64,000 bases of DNA, taken from Phycisphaeraceae bacterium D3-23. Its GTDB lineage: Bacteria > Planctomycetota > Phycisphaerae > Phycisphaerales > Phycisphaeraceae. The stretch covers positions 4,216,001-4,280,000 of the forward strand of contig CP114179.1 of NCBI GenBank assembly GCA_039555135.1. The letters are read 5' to 3'. Shown in pieces: positions 44,783 to 49,922 of this stretch; the first letter of the stretch is position 1, and each line of letters begins with the position of its first letter. The notes beneath the pieces were generated by a model. That model had not been told where the DNA came from. It searched no databases and worked only from the letters and a program-made list of their open reading frames with translations. The position numbers were made by a program, and so were the translations under genes.

Positions 44783-45355
44783 GTGCCCGTACTTAGCGAC
44801 CACCAGATCCGCGACGCCCTTGCCGTCGAGCCCTTCGAGCCCGCCGTGAAACGTGAGGGCAAGATCTCCTACGGCGTGTCGAGCTACGGCTACGACGTCC
44901 GCGTCGGATCGCTCTTCAAGATCTTCACCAACGCGCCGCTCGACGGCGGCGCTTCGATCGTCGACCCCAAAAAATTCGACGACCGAAACTTCGTCACTGT
45001 CGACACCGACACGACCGGCAAGGACCACGTCATCATCCCGCCCAACAGCTTCGCGCTGTGCGAGACGGTCGAGACCTTCCGCATCCCGCGCGATGTGCTC
45101 GTGATTTGTGTCGGCAAGAGCACCTACGCCCGCTGCGGCATTATCGTGAACGTGACGCCGCTCGAGCCCGAGTGGCGCGGCAAGGTGACGATCGAGATCA
45201 GCAACACGACCCCGCTGCCCGCAAAAATATACGCCCACGAGGGCATCGCGCAGATGATCTTCCTGCGGGCCGAGAAGCCGTGCGAGATCAGCTACGCGGA
45301 CAAGAACGGGAAGTACCAGGACCAGTCGGGTCTGGTGCTGCCGAAGGTGGATTGA
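44783..45355 (+). CDS. dcd: dCTP deaminase
   Basis: Deaminates dCTP to dUTP, feeding thymidylate synthesis. The 190-residue trimeric enzyme of the dUTPase-like fold has [14 protein letters not shown] near residue 30, the active-site block [19 protein letters not shown] and a C-terminal [20 protein letters not shown]. This family also contains bifunctional deaminase/dUTPases; the sequence cannot exclude that. It starts with GTG 44783, with GGACGAAAAG upstream as a weak ribosome-binding site, and has a promoter at 44662. A structured intergenic region follows. Confidence 0.95.
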
Positions 45356-45471
45356 ACCCAAACGCGATTCAAGGATTCGGTGATTCGACAACTCGGCTTA
45401 TGCATGACTGCATGAGGGAATCGGGCGTGGCACACCTCAGGACGAGGCATGATGACACGGATTGGCGGGGC

Positions 45472-45621
45472 GGGCCTTAGGCGTCTCGCTTCAGGGCATG
45501 GAGCCCGGTCGGGGCGCTGCTCCGAAAGGCCCAACCCGCTGCCTGGCCAGGGCTGGCCAAACGCTCGCTTCCTTCTCCCTCCCCCTCCCCGGGATGCCCA
45601 CCAGCCCGGGGAGGGTTTTTT
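45472..45621 (+). ncRNA. Candidate structured RNA with its own terminator
   Basis: In the 336-nt gap between dcd and the sulfatase gene. A stem GGGCCTT (45472-45478) / AAGGCCC (45526-45532) encloses two hairpins: GGGC-ATGGA-GCCC (45494-45506) and TCGGGGC-GCT-GCTCCGA (45509-45525). After it come TGGCCA-GGGC-TGGCCA (45544-45559) and the terminator at 45583. No open frame explains it. It does not show the conserved loops of SRP RNA, RNase P RNA or tmRNA. It could be a small RNA, or the structured 3' end of the dcd transcript. Confidence 0.4.
45583..45621 (+). terminator. Strong Rho-independent terminator
   Basis: Perfect 11-bp stem CCCTCCCCGGG / CCCGGGGAGGG (45583-45593 and 45605-45615), then TTTTTT. 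It ends either the dcd transcript, 228 nt after the stop, or the candidate RNA. Confidence 0.9.
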
Positions 45622-45691
45622 GTGCGCAGAGGCGGCGTAGCAAGGTCTACGTTGCATGATTCCGGATTGCGAAACAACACGCGTTGATTGA

Positions 45692-47212
45692 TTACCGCGC
45701 GACCGGCGCTTCGCGGATCGCCTCAAGCCGCTCGCGCATCGTGCGGACGCGGTCGGGGTGTTCGTCGGCGAGGTTCGTCGTCTCGCCGGGGTCTTCGGCC
45801 AGGTTGTACAGCCCGCCGGGCTCGGGGAGCTCGGCGCGGCGCCACGGGCCGAGCCCCTCGCGGGTTCGGCCGGGCGGGATGTATTTCCAGTGGCCGATGC
45901 GGATCGCGATCCGACCCGCGTGTTCGATGATGTGGTCCCGGCCGATCTCGGACCGACCCAGCAGTGCGGCAAGCACATCCGCGCTGTCGGGGCACTGGAC
46001 AGCCTCGAGCGTCTGCCCCGTCATCGCCGCGAATGATGCGCCGAAATCCACCTGACTCACCAGCGCGTCGCTCACACCGGGCTCGACGGTTCCGGGCCAG
46101 CTCACGATGAACGGCACACGCGTCCCGCCCTCAAACAGCGAGTACTTCCCGCCGCGCAGCGGGCCCGACGGCGTGTGGTCGCCCAATAACTCGTTGGCCT
46201 GGTCCTTGTAGCCGTCGTCGAGCACCGGGCCGTTGTCGCTGGTGAGGATGATGAGCGTGTCCTCAGTGAGCCCGAGCGTTTCGAGTTTCTGCATCACCTG
46301 GCCCACGCACCAGTCGAACTGCACAATCGAGTCGCCGCGCGGGCCCTGGCCCGAGACGCCGGCGAAGCGCGGGTGGGGCAGGCGCGGGACGTGGTTGTCG
46401 TGCGTCGCGAAGTAGAGGAAGAACGGGGCGTCTTGATTGTCCTCTATAAAGTCGAGCGCCTTGGTGGTGAAGTCGTCGGCCATCGCCTCGTCGTCCCAGA
46501 GCGCCGCCGCGCCGCCGGTCATGTAGCCGATGCGACCGACGCGATTAACCACAGCGGCGTTGTGGCCGTGGGACCAGTCCATGACCAGGGTGTCGCGGTC
46601 GCGCCGCCCGTCGGGCTCGCCGGGGAAGTTTTGCCCGCCGTAGCGGACGCGGATCGGGTCGTCGGGGTCGAGCCCGACGACGTGTCGCCCCTCGATGTAG
46701 ACGCAGGGCACACGGTCGCCCGTCGCGGCCATGATGAACTGGTAGTCGAACCCGATGTCGAGCGGGGCGGGGGTGATCTCGCCGTTCCAGTCGACGGGGT
46801 CCTGGCGCGAGCCCAGCCCGAGGTGCCACTTGCCCACGACGCCGGTCACGTAGCCCGCGTCCTGCATGAGGGAAGCGACGGTCGGGCTGCCCGGCGCGAT
46901 GACCATGGCCGCGTCGCCGCGCGCGATGCCCGTGCCCTGCTGGCGGAAGGCGTACATCCCCGTGAGCATCGCGAACCGGCTGGGCGTGCAGGTCGCCGAC
47001 GGGCAGTAGCCGTTGGTGAAGCGCAGCCCCTGCTCGGCGAGCGCGTCGACGTTCGGTGTCGGGATCGTCCCGCCGTAGCACCCGAAGTCGCCGTAGCCGA
47101 TGTCGTCGGCGTAGATGATGATGACGTTGGGCGTGTCTTGGGCCGCAGCCGCTGCCGCGAGGACGAGCGCCAGCGCGAAACAAACAGCGAGACGACAGCC
47201 ATCCATCAGCAT
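45692..47212 (-). CDS. Secreted sulfatase (arylsulfatase family, type I)
   Basis: Hydrolyses sulfate esters, probably on algal polysaccharide. The 506-residue protein has a signal peptide (about 1-25, LAVCFALALVLAAAAAAQ). The metal-binding start of the fold is NVIIIYADDIGYGDFGCYG, and the sulfatase signature CTPSR (residues 75-79) contains the Cys converted to formylglycine. Further motifs are GKWHLG and TSDNGPV. Start ATG 47212, with GGAG 7 nt upstream; ATG 47206 is an alternative. The gene begins 16 nt after the stop of the heme lipoprotein gene, so the two are cotranscribed. No formylglycine-generating enzyme gene is in the window. Confidence 0.93.
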   Translation of the reverse strand: MLMDGCRLAVCFALALVLAAAAAAQDTPNVIIIYADDIGYGDFGCYGGTIPTPNVDALAEQGLRFTNGYCPSATCTPSRFAMLTGMYAFRQQGTGIARGDAAMVIAPGSPTVASLMQDAGYVTGVVGKWHLGLGSRQDPVDWNGEITPAPLDIGFDYQFIMAATGDRVPCVYIEGRHVVGLDPDDPIRVRYGGQNFPGEPDGRRDRDTLVMDWSHGHNAAVVNRVGRIGYMTGGAAALWDDEAMADDFTTKALDFIEDNQDAPFFLYFATHDNHVPRLPHPRFAGVSGQGPRGDSIVQFDWCVGQVMQKLETLGLTEDTLIILTSDNGPVLDDGYKDQANELLGDHTPSGPLRGGKYSLFEGGTRVPFIVSWPGTVEPGVSDALVSQVDFGASFAAMTGQTLEAVQCPDSADVLAALLGRSEIGRDHIIEHAGRIAIRIGHWKYIPPGRTREGLGPWRRAELPEPGGLYNLAEDPGETTNLADEHPDRVRTMRERLEAIREAPVAR

Positions 47213-47228
47213 CACAAAACTCCGGGGG

Positions 47229-49922
47229 TTACTCGGCAAACATCGCGTGGTCGGCATCGCCGGCGGACATCAAGTACGCGATCAGATCACGCAGCTCGTC
47301 CGGGTTCATCGGGTCGACCAGCCCGGTCTGCATGGGCGAGACGGGTGAGAACACGATCGAGGCGATGTCGCCGCGCGGCAGGTCCATGGTCTGCGACAGG
47401 TCGGTGTTGCTCGTGGCGATACGGACGAGTTCGTCATTCTGCAGGACAATCCGGCCGACGCGTTCTTCGCCGTTGTTGAGTGTGACGATCGACTGCGCGT
47501 ACTGGTCGGTGATGTCGCGGCTGGGCTCGACGATGTGTGTGATGAGGTCGCTGAGCGAGTAGGTACCGCTGACGGTCGAGAGGTCCGGGCCGATCGCGCC
47601 GCCGTCGCCGGCGAAGCGGTGGCACTGGGCGCAGAGCGCGGACTGGTAGAGCTCGGCCCCGCGCTCGAAGCTGCGCCCGGTGAGTTTGCCCTCGACGGCG
47701 TTGACGGCCTCGGCCGTGGTCCACGCACGGCCCGGGCCCAGCGGCGCGCCGGGGGGCGGGTCGTTGGCGTCGGGGTTGGGCAGCGTCGCGATGTAGGCGT
47801 CCATCGCGGCGCGCTGGGCGGGCGGGCAGGCGTCCAGGGCTTGCTGCTGGATCTGGTCGACGAAGCCGCGGTAGCTGTTGCCGCCATCGGCGCGCATCGC
47901 GCGGTTGAGCCAGAGGAAGTACGAGCGTCGCTGGGCCTCGGTCCAGCCGGTCTGAAGGTTTCGGAGCATGAACGCGAAGTTGAGCTTTCGCGTGGGCGGT
48001 GGGTTGTGGAGCATCTGACCGATCGCGCCGCCGTACTGGTCGCTGCGCGCGACGAGGTGGGCCCAGTTGGGGGGCTGCGGCGAGCCGGGCGCGGTCATGA
48101 GCGCGAGCGACTTGTCGATTACGTTCGGGCTTTCGAGGTAGATGAGCAGCCGGGCGAGCTCGGCGTTGACGTCTGCGTGGTTGCTGGGGAATCGCGGGTC
48201 AATTGCATCGATCATCGTCTGCTTCTGGCTCGCATCAGGCGGCGCGAGGCGGATAAACGCGAGTTGGTAGACACGCAGGAGAGACAGGCGTTGCTGGGGC
48301 GAGAGGGACTCGTCTTCGAGCCGAAGTGCAGCGGTGACTAGCGCGGGCTGGTCGTCGGCGCTTCCCAGCCGGGCGAGCGCGAGCAGCGCCTCGATCGACG
48401 CGGCGGGGTTCGTTTCATCGAGCGCTCGTTGCCGCCAGCGTTCGATGGGCTGGTGCTCGAGCGCGGTCCGCGCGGCGTATCGGACGAATCGGTCCTTGTG
48501 GCCCAGCGCGGGCCAGAGCGTGTCGATCGCCTCGGCGGGGGCGTCGGCGGTATGGAGCGCTTCGAGCTGATGGCGCAGCTTCGCCTCGGCCGAAGGCGCG
48601 GGCGGTGCAGGAGCCGGAGAGGTATCGCGGACGCCGAAGTAGTGGACGCGGTAGAGGCGGGACTGGGTCCGTCGGCCGCCGGTGGCGAAGTACATTGCGC
48701 CGTCCTCACCGATCACCGCATCGGTCAGCGGGAGTGGCTTGGACGCGACAAACTCTTCGACCTCGGCGCCGTAGGTCGCGCCGTCGGGCGAAAGGTGCAG
48801 GGCGTACATTGTGCCGAAGGTCCAGTCGAGGATGAACAGCGCGTCTTGGTAGGCGTGTGGGAAGGCTGCGCCGGTGCCGAACACGACACCCGTCGGCGAG
48901 CCCGGGCCGATATCGACCACCGGCGGGAGCGAGTCGGGGTAGTAGGTCGGCCACTTGCCCGTGCCGCTGCGCCAGCCGAACTCGCTGCCGCTTACGGCGT
49001 GGCACACGCGCGTCGGCCGATACCACGGCGCGCCCATGTCCCACTCCATGTCCGCGTCGTAGGTGAACAGTTCGCCCGCGCGGTTGAGCGCGATGTCGTA
49101 CTGATTGCGGTAGCCGATACTGATGAGCTCGACATCGCTGCCGTCGGGGCTGACTTCGAGGATGAACCCGCCGGGGGCGAGCTTGCCCGCGGCGTGGCCG
49201 TTGGCGTCCCACTCGCGCTTCAAGAGGTGGTCTTCGCCCCAGACCTGCGGGACGCGACTGCTCGTGATCGGCGGCAGGTCGATGTGGTTGCCGCAGCAGA
49301 CGATGAGCGATTCGCCGTCGTGCGACACGATGATGGCGTGCTGGCCGTGCTCGCCGCCGCCCTGCATGATCGGCAGCACGTGATCGGACTGGTCGAGCGT
49401 GCCGTCGCCGTCGCTGTCGGTCACGCGGAACATGCCCTTGCCCGACACCATGACGTAAAGCGAATCGAACGCCCAGCACAGCCCCTGCGCCCCGCCGAGG
49501 TTGAGCCCGAGGGACTCGACCTGTGTATCCGTTTCGTATTCGCCGACAGGTGCGGGGGTGACCCGGTAGACCTCGCCGTACTGGTCGGCCGCGAAGAGCG
49601 TGTTCCCCGGACCCGCCGCGAGCGCGACCCACGACCCCTGGGTCTCGCCCGGGACGTCGTAGAGCACCTCGGCTTGGAAGCCCGGCGGCACCGCGACACC
49701 AAGGTCTGCACGCGGGTTTACCGGCGCGTCGGGCTCGACGATGGCCTCTTCGACCTCGGAGGTGTCGGCGTTATCGTCGGCGGGCCCATCTTTGCCGCGC
49801 TCAGAGCCGCCGCCGCAGCCGACGATGTTGACTAGCGGGATGCCGATCATGAATGCGATGGCAGCGCTGCGCGCGGTGGTGTCCAAGGCACTGACCAGAG
49901 TGTGCTTCACGGTGTGGATCAT
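47229..49922 (-). CDS. PVC-type beta-propeller/HEAT/cytochrome c lipoprotein
   Basis: An 897-residue protein of the membrane-bound dehydrogenase type found in Pirellula/Verrucomicrobium relatives. It is a predicted lipoprotein (LVNIVGC, Cys36, then an acidic linker). A glucose/sorbosone-dehydrogenase-like propeller follows (about 75-430), then a HEAT-like region (about 445-690). The C-terminal heme-binding cytochrome c domain has CAQCH at 764-768, with a likely Met ligand near PMQTGL. It probably oxidises a sugar-like substrate in the periplasm and passes electrons to heme. The adjacent sulfatase suggests a role in sulfated-glycan use. Confidence 0.88.
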   Translation of the reverse strand: MIHTVKHTLVSALDTTARSAAIAFMIGIPLVNIVGCGGGSERGKDGPADDNADTSEVEEAIVEPDAPVNPRADLGVAVPPGFQAEVLYDVPGETQGSWVALAAGPGNTLFAADQYGEVYRVTPAPVGEYETDTQVESLGLNLGGAQGLCWAFDSLYVMVSGKGMFRVTDSDGDGTLDQSDHVLPIMQGGGEHGQHAIIVSHDGESLIVCCGNHIDLPPITSSRVPQVWGEDHLLKREWDANGHAAGKLAPGGFILEVSPDGSDVELISIGYRNQYDIALNRAGELFTYDADMEWDMGAPWYRPTRVCHAVSGSEFGWRSGTGKWPTYYPDSLPPVVDIGPGSPTGVVFGTGAAFPHAYQDALFILDWTFGTMYALHLSPDGATYGAEVEEFVASKPLPLTDAVIGEDGAMYFATGGRRTQSRLYRVHYFGVRDTSPAPAPPAPSAEAKLRHQLEALHTADAPAEAIDTLWPALGHKDRFVRYAARTALEHQPIERWRQRALDETNPAASIEALLALARLGSADDQPALVTAALRLEDESLSPQQRLSLLRVYQLAFIRLAPPDASQKQTMIDAIDPRFPSNHADVNAELARLLIYLESPNVIDKSLALMTAPGSPQPPNWAHLVARSDQYGGAIGQMLHNPPPTRKLNFAFMLRNLQTGWTEAQRRSYFLWLNRAMRADGGNSYRGFVDQIQQQALDACPPAQRAAMDAYIATLPNPDANDPPPGAPLGPGRAWTTAEAVNAVEGKLTGRSFERGAELYQSALCAQCHRFAGDGGAIGPDLSTVSGTYSLSDLITHIVEPSRDITDQYAQSIVTLNNGEERVGRIVLQNDELVRIATSNTDLSQTMDLPRGDIASIVFSPVSPMQTGLVDPMNPDELRDLIAYLMSAGDADHAMFAE

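What the first reader, a model, noticed from the sequence alone, without database searches (positions are those of the whole stretch)
45472..45621. Candidate undescribed structured RNA between dcd and the sulfatase
A closing stem with two internal hairpins, a third hairpin and a strong terminator fall in a gap with no open frame. The features of SRP RNA, RNase P RNA, tmRNA and 6S RNA were not seen.
Basis: seen in the sequence. Interest (0 to 1): 0.6.

Follow-up and report, generated by a model that had tools for sequence, protein, structure and literature searches.

The report
Predicted CsrA-binding small RNA in Phycisphaerales
The gap after dcd holds a real small-RNA gene, conserved across a whole order of Planctomycetota and usually sitting just behind a ribonucleotide-reductase gene, whose hairpin loops carry the binding sequence of the global regulator CsrA, a kind of RNA so far established only in Gammaproteobacteria.

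Summary
The gene runs about 45422-45621. Its most conserved part is a 16-nt C/U tract (45567-45582) plus a terminator with a CCCACCA loop. A covariance model of that core hits 32 of 51 family genomes strongly; a broader one hits 159 of 201 genomes of the order. In nearly all strong family hits, and in 46 of 75 weak hits outside the family, it sits just 3' of nrdJ on the same strand; only the window's genus has dcd there instead.

The variable 5' half is strongly enriched for ANGGA, the CsrA site, in hairpin loops: 33 seen against 5.1 expected in 38 loci, repeated in 39 independent loci. In the window this is GGGC-AUGGA-GCCC (45494-45506). CsrA is in 41 of 41 relatives, FliW in 39, Hfq in none, and csrA leaders carry the same hairpins.

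Best reading: a low-valency CsrA-binding sRNA, probably a CsrA antagonist, with a C/U-rich tail of unknown targets. Transcription and CsrA binding are untested. No Rfam family matches. The known anti-correlation of FliW with BarA-UvrY makes this a testable surprise.

The parts
45422..45621 (+). predicted sRNA gene (about 200 nt; the 5' end is inferred from the closing helix and the start of inter-species similarity)
   Evidence: the 5' end has not been mapped
45422..45428 (+). 5' arm of the closing helix CGGGCGU
   Evidence: pairs with 45561-45567. It becomes GAGCGU/ACGCUC in G001 and G002. Other genera use GGAAGCGG with CCGCUUCC
45457..45461 (+). ACGGA, CsrA-type site, predicted unpaired
   Evidence: ACGGA kept in G002, and G001 has AAGGA at the aligned place
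45494..45506 (+). hairpin GGGC-AUGGA-GCCC, CsrA-type binding hairpin
   Evidence: The loop is AAGGA in G002; G001 and G003 have CGCG-ACGGAN-CGCG instead
45545..45560 (+). hairpin TGGCCAGGGCTGGCCA
   Evidence: GGCC...GGCC kept in many family genomes
45561..45567 (+). 3' arm of the closing helix ACGCUCG
45567..45582 (+). C/U-rich tract GCUUCCUUCUCCCUCC, the most conserved element; complementary to Shine-Dalgarno-like sequence
45583..45621 (+). intrinsic terminator, 11-bp stem, loop containing CCCACCA, U6
   Evidence: compensatory changes at 6 of 10 stem pairs
44783..45355 (+). dcd, dCTP deaminase, upstream neighbour in this genus only
   Evidence: TIGR02274, 152 bits

Best explanation
The locus encodes a stand-alone or 3'-UTR-derived small RNA of about 200 nt that binds CsrA. 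Shown by computation: a conserved RNA gene made of a fast-evolving 5' domain that keeps re-forming hairpins with ANGGA in the loop, a C/U-rich single-stranded tract, and a terminator. Inferred: CsrA dimers bind the ANGGA hairpins; when the RNA is abundant it draws CsrA away from mRNAs (a low-valency sponge, typically 2-4 ANGGA per homologue), so CsrA activity responds to transcription of the nrdJ (or dcd) region. Inferred with less confidence: the C/U tract pairs with Shine-Dalgarno-like sequences of mRNAs, which would make it a dual-function RNA, as reported for the base-pairing, CsrA-binding sRNA McaS.
For: The core model hits 32 of 51 family genomes at E<=2e-7; the broader model hits 159 of 201 order genomes at E<=1e-3. 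Position is conserved: nrdJ is immediately upstream in all strong family loci except the four dcd loci of genus g1. Outside the family, 46 of 75 hits lie within 1.5 kb 3' of nrdJ, same strand, where chance predicts about 0.02 (the chance figure is my estimate). Among new hits of the second model, 12 of 21 do. ANGGA: 94 seen against 39.1 +- 6.1 in shuffles; inside hairpin loops 33 against 5.1 +- 2.4, maximum 14 of 300 runs. A.GGA ranks first of 256 patterns in loops; the reverse strand gives 3 and the downstream flank 2. Independent set: 73 against 32.7 +- 5.0, in loops 15 against 4.9 +- 2.1, maximum 11. One locus per genus: 63 against 27.1 +- 4.9, in loops 23 against 3.8 +- 2.0, maximum 11 of 500. 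Negative control, similar C/U-tail loci not beside nrdJ: 14 against 16.6. CsrA in 41 of 41 relatives, Hfq in 0 of 41. The genome's CsrA keeps L4 and R44, and its leader has GAC-AAGGAU-GUC; 16 of 21 csrA leaders have an upstream ANGGA hairpin. SELEX consensus RUACARGGAUGU with GGA in a hairpin loop: PMC7652899.
Against: No transcript data and no binding data. The window's own copy has only two clear ANGGA sites plus one at the 5' edge, far fewer than CsrB. 14 of 38 homologues have no ANGGA in a loop with a stem of 4 bp or more. In the independent set A.GGA is third, not first, among loop patterns. In the negative control the loop-borne count (6 against 2.4 +- 1.5) is somewhat raised although the total is not. 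A coding stretch inside nrdJ also has many loop-borne ANGGA (16 of 51), probably because conserved coding sites repeat among relatives. Covariation in the aligned hairpin is modest. FliW is present in 39 of 41 relatives, and sRNA-based and FliW-based control of CsrA have been thought to exclude each other (PMC4682653).
Confidence: 0.66

Rival explanations
1. It is mainly a base-pairing sRNA: the C/U tract blocks Shine-Dalgarno sequences, and CsrA, if it binds, only stabilises or chaperones it, as CsrA does for SR1 in B. subtilis.
For: The C/U tract is the most conserved part. Hfq is absent. CsrA promotes SR1-ahrC pairing (PMC7652899). Other RNAs in family f3 carry a similar C/U tail without ANGGA enrichment, which suggests that the tail is a module of its own.
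Against: Predicted pairing with start regions is not specific: in the window 7 of 42 ORF starts reach -10 kcal/mol, and csrA1 (-9.9) does not stand out. The tract varies in sequence outside the family. It does not explain the recurrent ANGGA loops.
Confidence: 0.17
2. It is a 3'-UTR element of nrdJ or dcd that controls that mRNA in cis (stability or termination), with CsrA as the effector, and no free sRNA.
For: Same-strand position right behind nrdJ across the order; in genus g9 the first conserved RNA sequence starts only about 10-20 nt after the nrdJ stop.
Against: The RNA persists behind dcd in genus g1: G000, G002 and G003 lack nrdJ, and G001 keeps nrdJ elsewhere. G002 keeps the downstream neighbours of the nrdJ genomes. 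G027 has extra copies away from nrdJ.
Confidence: 0.12
3. It is just a strong terminator with conserved C/U-rich flank; the rest is unconstrained intergenic sequence.
For: Weak overall folding z-scores; rapid turnover of the 5' half.
Against: ANGGA enrichment, in total and in loops, in two independent sets and in the one-per-genus set; no enrichment of total ANGGA in the control loci; ANGGA hairpins re-formed with different stems in G001 and G003.
Confidence: 0.05

Closest known systems
CsrB/CsrC and RsmX/RsmY/RsmZ sRNAs (Gammaproteobacteria)
   Same: GGA motifs of the ANGGA type presented in hairpin loops, a stand-alone gene with an intrinsic terminator, and CsrA in the genome
   Different: Fewer sites, an added conserved C/U tract, linkage to nrdJ, another phylum with FliW, and no Rfam match
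McaS (E. coli)
   Same: Few GGA sites combined with a base-pairing role; reported to antagonise CsrA when overexpressed (PMC7652899)
   Different: McaS works in a bacterium with Hfq; no Rfam match to it here; targets here are unknown
SR1 (B. subtilis)
   Same: CsrA meets a base-pairing sRNA in trans
   Different: In SR1 CsrA promotes sRNA-mRNA pairing; no Rfam match here, and SR1 also encodes a peptide (PMC8501984 abstract)
sX13 (Rfam RF02232)
   Same: C-rich sRNA with a GC-rich terminator
   Different: Only 14.5 bits against a gathering score of 50

Membership tests
CsrB/CsrC/RsmX/Y/Z as Rfam families | match to the covariance model | tested here: not met
   no hit at gathering or relaxed thresholds in the window or 16 homologues
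CsrA-binding sRNA (functional class) | ANGGA motifs in hairpin loops beyond chance | tested here: met
CsrA-binding sRNA (functional class) | CsrA with its RNA-binding residues in the same genome | tested here: met
CsrA-binding sRNA (functional class) | expressed as a small RNA | not testable with these tools
   no transcriptome available
CsrA-binding sRNA (functional class) | binds and antagonises CsrA | not testable with these tools
   needs EMSA, CLIP or genetics
CsrB/RsmY-type sRNAs | transcribed by a BarA-UvrY / GacS-GacA system | not tested
   no search for GacA-type regulators or their upstream sites was made
SRP RNA, RNase P RNA, tmRNA, 6S RNA | match to the Rfam models | tested here: not met
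sX13-type C-rich sRNA | match to RF02232 | tested here: not met
   14.5 bits against 50
5' leader regulator (riboswitch or attenuator) | a downstream gene on the same strand that it could control | tested here: not met
   the next gene (the sulfatase ORF 45692-47257) is on the other strand

The most novel reading that the evidence does not exclude
In Phycisphaerales, which lack Hfq, CsrA serves both as a target and as a matchmaker for a dual-function sRNA. The ANGGA hairpins recruit CsrA, the C/U tail pairs with ribosome-binding sites, and linkage to nrdJ or dcd ties the Csr network to dNTP synthesis, alongside FliW control. It would be a second, RNA-based arm of CsrA control in bacteria thought to use FliW.
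Probability: 0.22. Interest if true: 0.85.

Novelty: new variant of a known kind. Interest (0 to 1): 0.72.

Why it matters
RNA antagonists of CsrA have been placed in Gammaproteobacteria, with FliW proposed as the antagonist elsewhere, Planctomycetes named among them; whether FliW-encoding species also use inhibitory sRNAs was left open (PMC4682653). This RNA is a concrete, conserved candidate in FliW-bearing bacteria. It makes that question directly testable, and it would be, as far as the searches here show, the first CsrA-binding sRNA family proposed for Planctomycetota.

Tried and rejected
Known Rfam RNAs: rejected. Riboswitch or leader: rejected, since the downstream gene is antisense. 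'Just the dcd 3' UTR': rejected as an identity by the nrdJ-linked homologues. Unusual folding energy as evidence: not supported. csrA mRNA as a specific target of the C/U tail: a 7-8 bp match exists but it is no better than many ORF starts. A second copy in the own genome (G000:C1:1918058-1918110, 30.9 bits): judged a chance terminator match. A viral or mobile origin: no viral contig has the motif. Weak model hits in two genomes outside the order (G247, G376): not followed up, probably chance. A set of C/U-tail RNAs away from nrdJ in family f3 proved to be different RNAs without enrichment of total ANGGA, and served as a negative control. Literature searches found no report of such an RNA in Planctomycetota; only open-licence papers were searchable.

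Full report
Observation. The evidence therefore has to come from comparison, not from stability.

Homologues. A DNA search of 60 relatives gave strong hits that all covered the 3' part, around window 45543-45622. Aligned, they share GCTTCCTTCTCCCTCC followed by a terminator whose loop contains CCCACCA. A covariance model of this core (R1) hit 32 of 51 family genomes at E<=2e-7, as a rule one strong hit per genome, and 125 of 201 genomes of the order at E<=1e-3. A second model built from 50 diverse members (R2) hit 159 of 201. In 392 genomes of the phylum, 21 had hits at 1e-5, all but two inside the order. An exact motif scan of named genomes returned only Planctomycetota, nearly all labelled Phycisphaerales, Phycisphaeraceae or Phycisphaera, and no viral contigs.

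Neighbourhood. In the family loci the gene directly upstream on the same strand is nrdJ, the B12-dependent ribonucleotide reductase (identified), ending in CYKCxNCGxSMGCS. The exceptions are the four dcd loci of genus g1, including the window. Three of those four genomes lack nrdJ; G001 keeps it on another contig, and the window's genome has a class I type alpha subunit instead. G002 keeps the same downstream genes as nrdJ genomes, an approximately 750-aa membrane/TPR-like protein and ispE (my reading of the sequences), so the RNA stayed while the upstream gene changed. Outside the family, 46 of 75 R1 hits with a listed nrdJ position lie within 1.5 kb 3' of it on the same strand, and 12 of 21 new R2 hits do. 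Chance would give about 0.02 of 75, by my estimate from genome size.

The CsrA signature. The 5' half differs in sequence between genera but is full of ANGGA. In 38 loci there are 94 (shuffles 39.1 +- 6.1) and 33 lie in loops of hairpins with at least 4 bp (shuffles 5.1 +- 2.4, maximum 14 of 300). Among all 256 patterns of that form A.GGA is the most frequent in loops, 33 against 19 for the next, which may share the same loops, and a median of 3; the reverse strand and the downstream flank give 3 and 2. The test was repeated on 39 loci of other families not used to form the idea: 73 against 32.7 +- 5.0, and 15 in loops against 4.9 +- 2.1. With one locus per genus: 63 against 27.1 and 23 against 3.8, neither reached in 500 shuffles. 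RNAs with a similar C/U tail that are not next to nrdJ show no enrichment of ANGGA (14 against 16.6 +- 3.8), although their loop-borne count (6 against 2.4 +- 1.5) is at the upper edge of the shuffles. Examples: GGGC-AUGGA-GCCC in the window, GGGC-AAGGA-GCCC in G002, CGCG-ACGGAA-CGCG in G003, GGCGUU-ACGGAG-AAUGCC in G034, and CGGGGUC-ACGGAAU-GAUCCCG in G187. Formal covariation on the aligned hairpin is modest: 82% of cells paired against 33-57% for slid versions, three pairs changed on both sides. The terminator has six such pairs.

The protein side. CsrA was found in 41 of 41 relatives, FliW in 39 and Hfq in none. The window genome's CsrA keeps L4 and R44, the residues highlighted in PMC7652899. 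Its own leader carries GAC-AAGGAU-GUC, close to the SELEX consensus RUACARGGAUGU, and 16 of 21 csrA leaders examined have an ANGGA hairpin upstream of the ribosome-binding site. So the same signal is apparently in use for csrA autoregulation in these bacteria.

Mechanism. The most economical reading is an RNA that binds CsrA through two to four sites and so titrates it, produced from the nrdJ or dcd region. The conserved C/U tract probably pairs with purine-rich ribosome-binding sequence; no specific target could be shown. Steps shown: gene, conservation, position, motif enrichment, presence of CsrA. Steps inferred: transcription, binding, sequestration, base pairing.

Known or new. No Rfam family matches, and the paper searches found no such RNA, though subscription papers were not searchable. 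It works like a Csr/Rsm-type RNA but is not a member of any described family. FliW and the BarA-UvrY/sRNA route have been reported as strongly anti-correlated, and Planctomycetes were placed on the FliW side (PMC4682653); a CsrA-binding RNA here would change that picture.

Limits. Sequences are related, so the shuffle statistics overstate independence; the one-per-genus and second-set tests address this only in part. The 5' end is inferred. The window's own copy has only two clear sites inside the RNA.

Noticed in passing
L244-L249 and L254-L260 (family f3 genomes): Other RNAs that share a C/U-rich tail (GCCCTTTTCCCTCCCTCCG or close) before a GC-rich terminator, away from nrdJ and without enrichment of total ANGGA; possibly one or more further sRNA families with the same tail module. 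L250-L253 carry another variant (CATCTTTCTCCCCTCCGCC).
   Followed up: partly
L162 (G000:C1:1437600-1438200) and L205-L224: csrA leaders of the order carry an ANGGA hairpin upstream of a ribosome-binding site that is usually AAGGAAGGAG, in 16 of 21 genomes, suggesting autoregulation.
   Followed up: partly
G000:C1:1921000-1923000 (L164): The window's genome lacks nrdJ and has a class I type ribonucleotide reductase alpha subunit; G002 and G003 of the genus also lack nrdJ, while G001 keeps it away from the RNA.
   Followed up: partly
L084 (G027:C34), also L108 and L109: G027 has a second copy of the C/U tract and terminator about 520 nt further along, and weaker copies elsewhere.
   Followed up: no
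L007 1586-1666: A long palindromic stretch (AGCGGGTGACGCGCAGCG...) just after the RNA in G003 gives spurious microRNA hits in Rfam on both strands.
   Followed up: no
G000 csrA2 (L163): A second, divergent CsrA of 72 aa is encoded apart from the fliW-csrA1 pair, and most relatives also have two; which one would bind this RNA is open.
   Followed up: no
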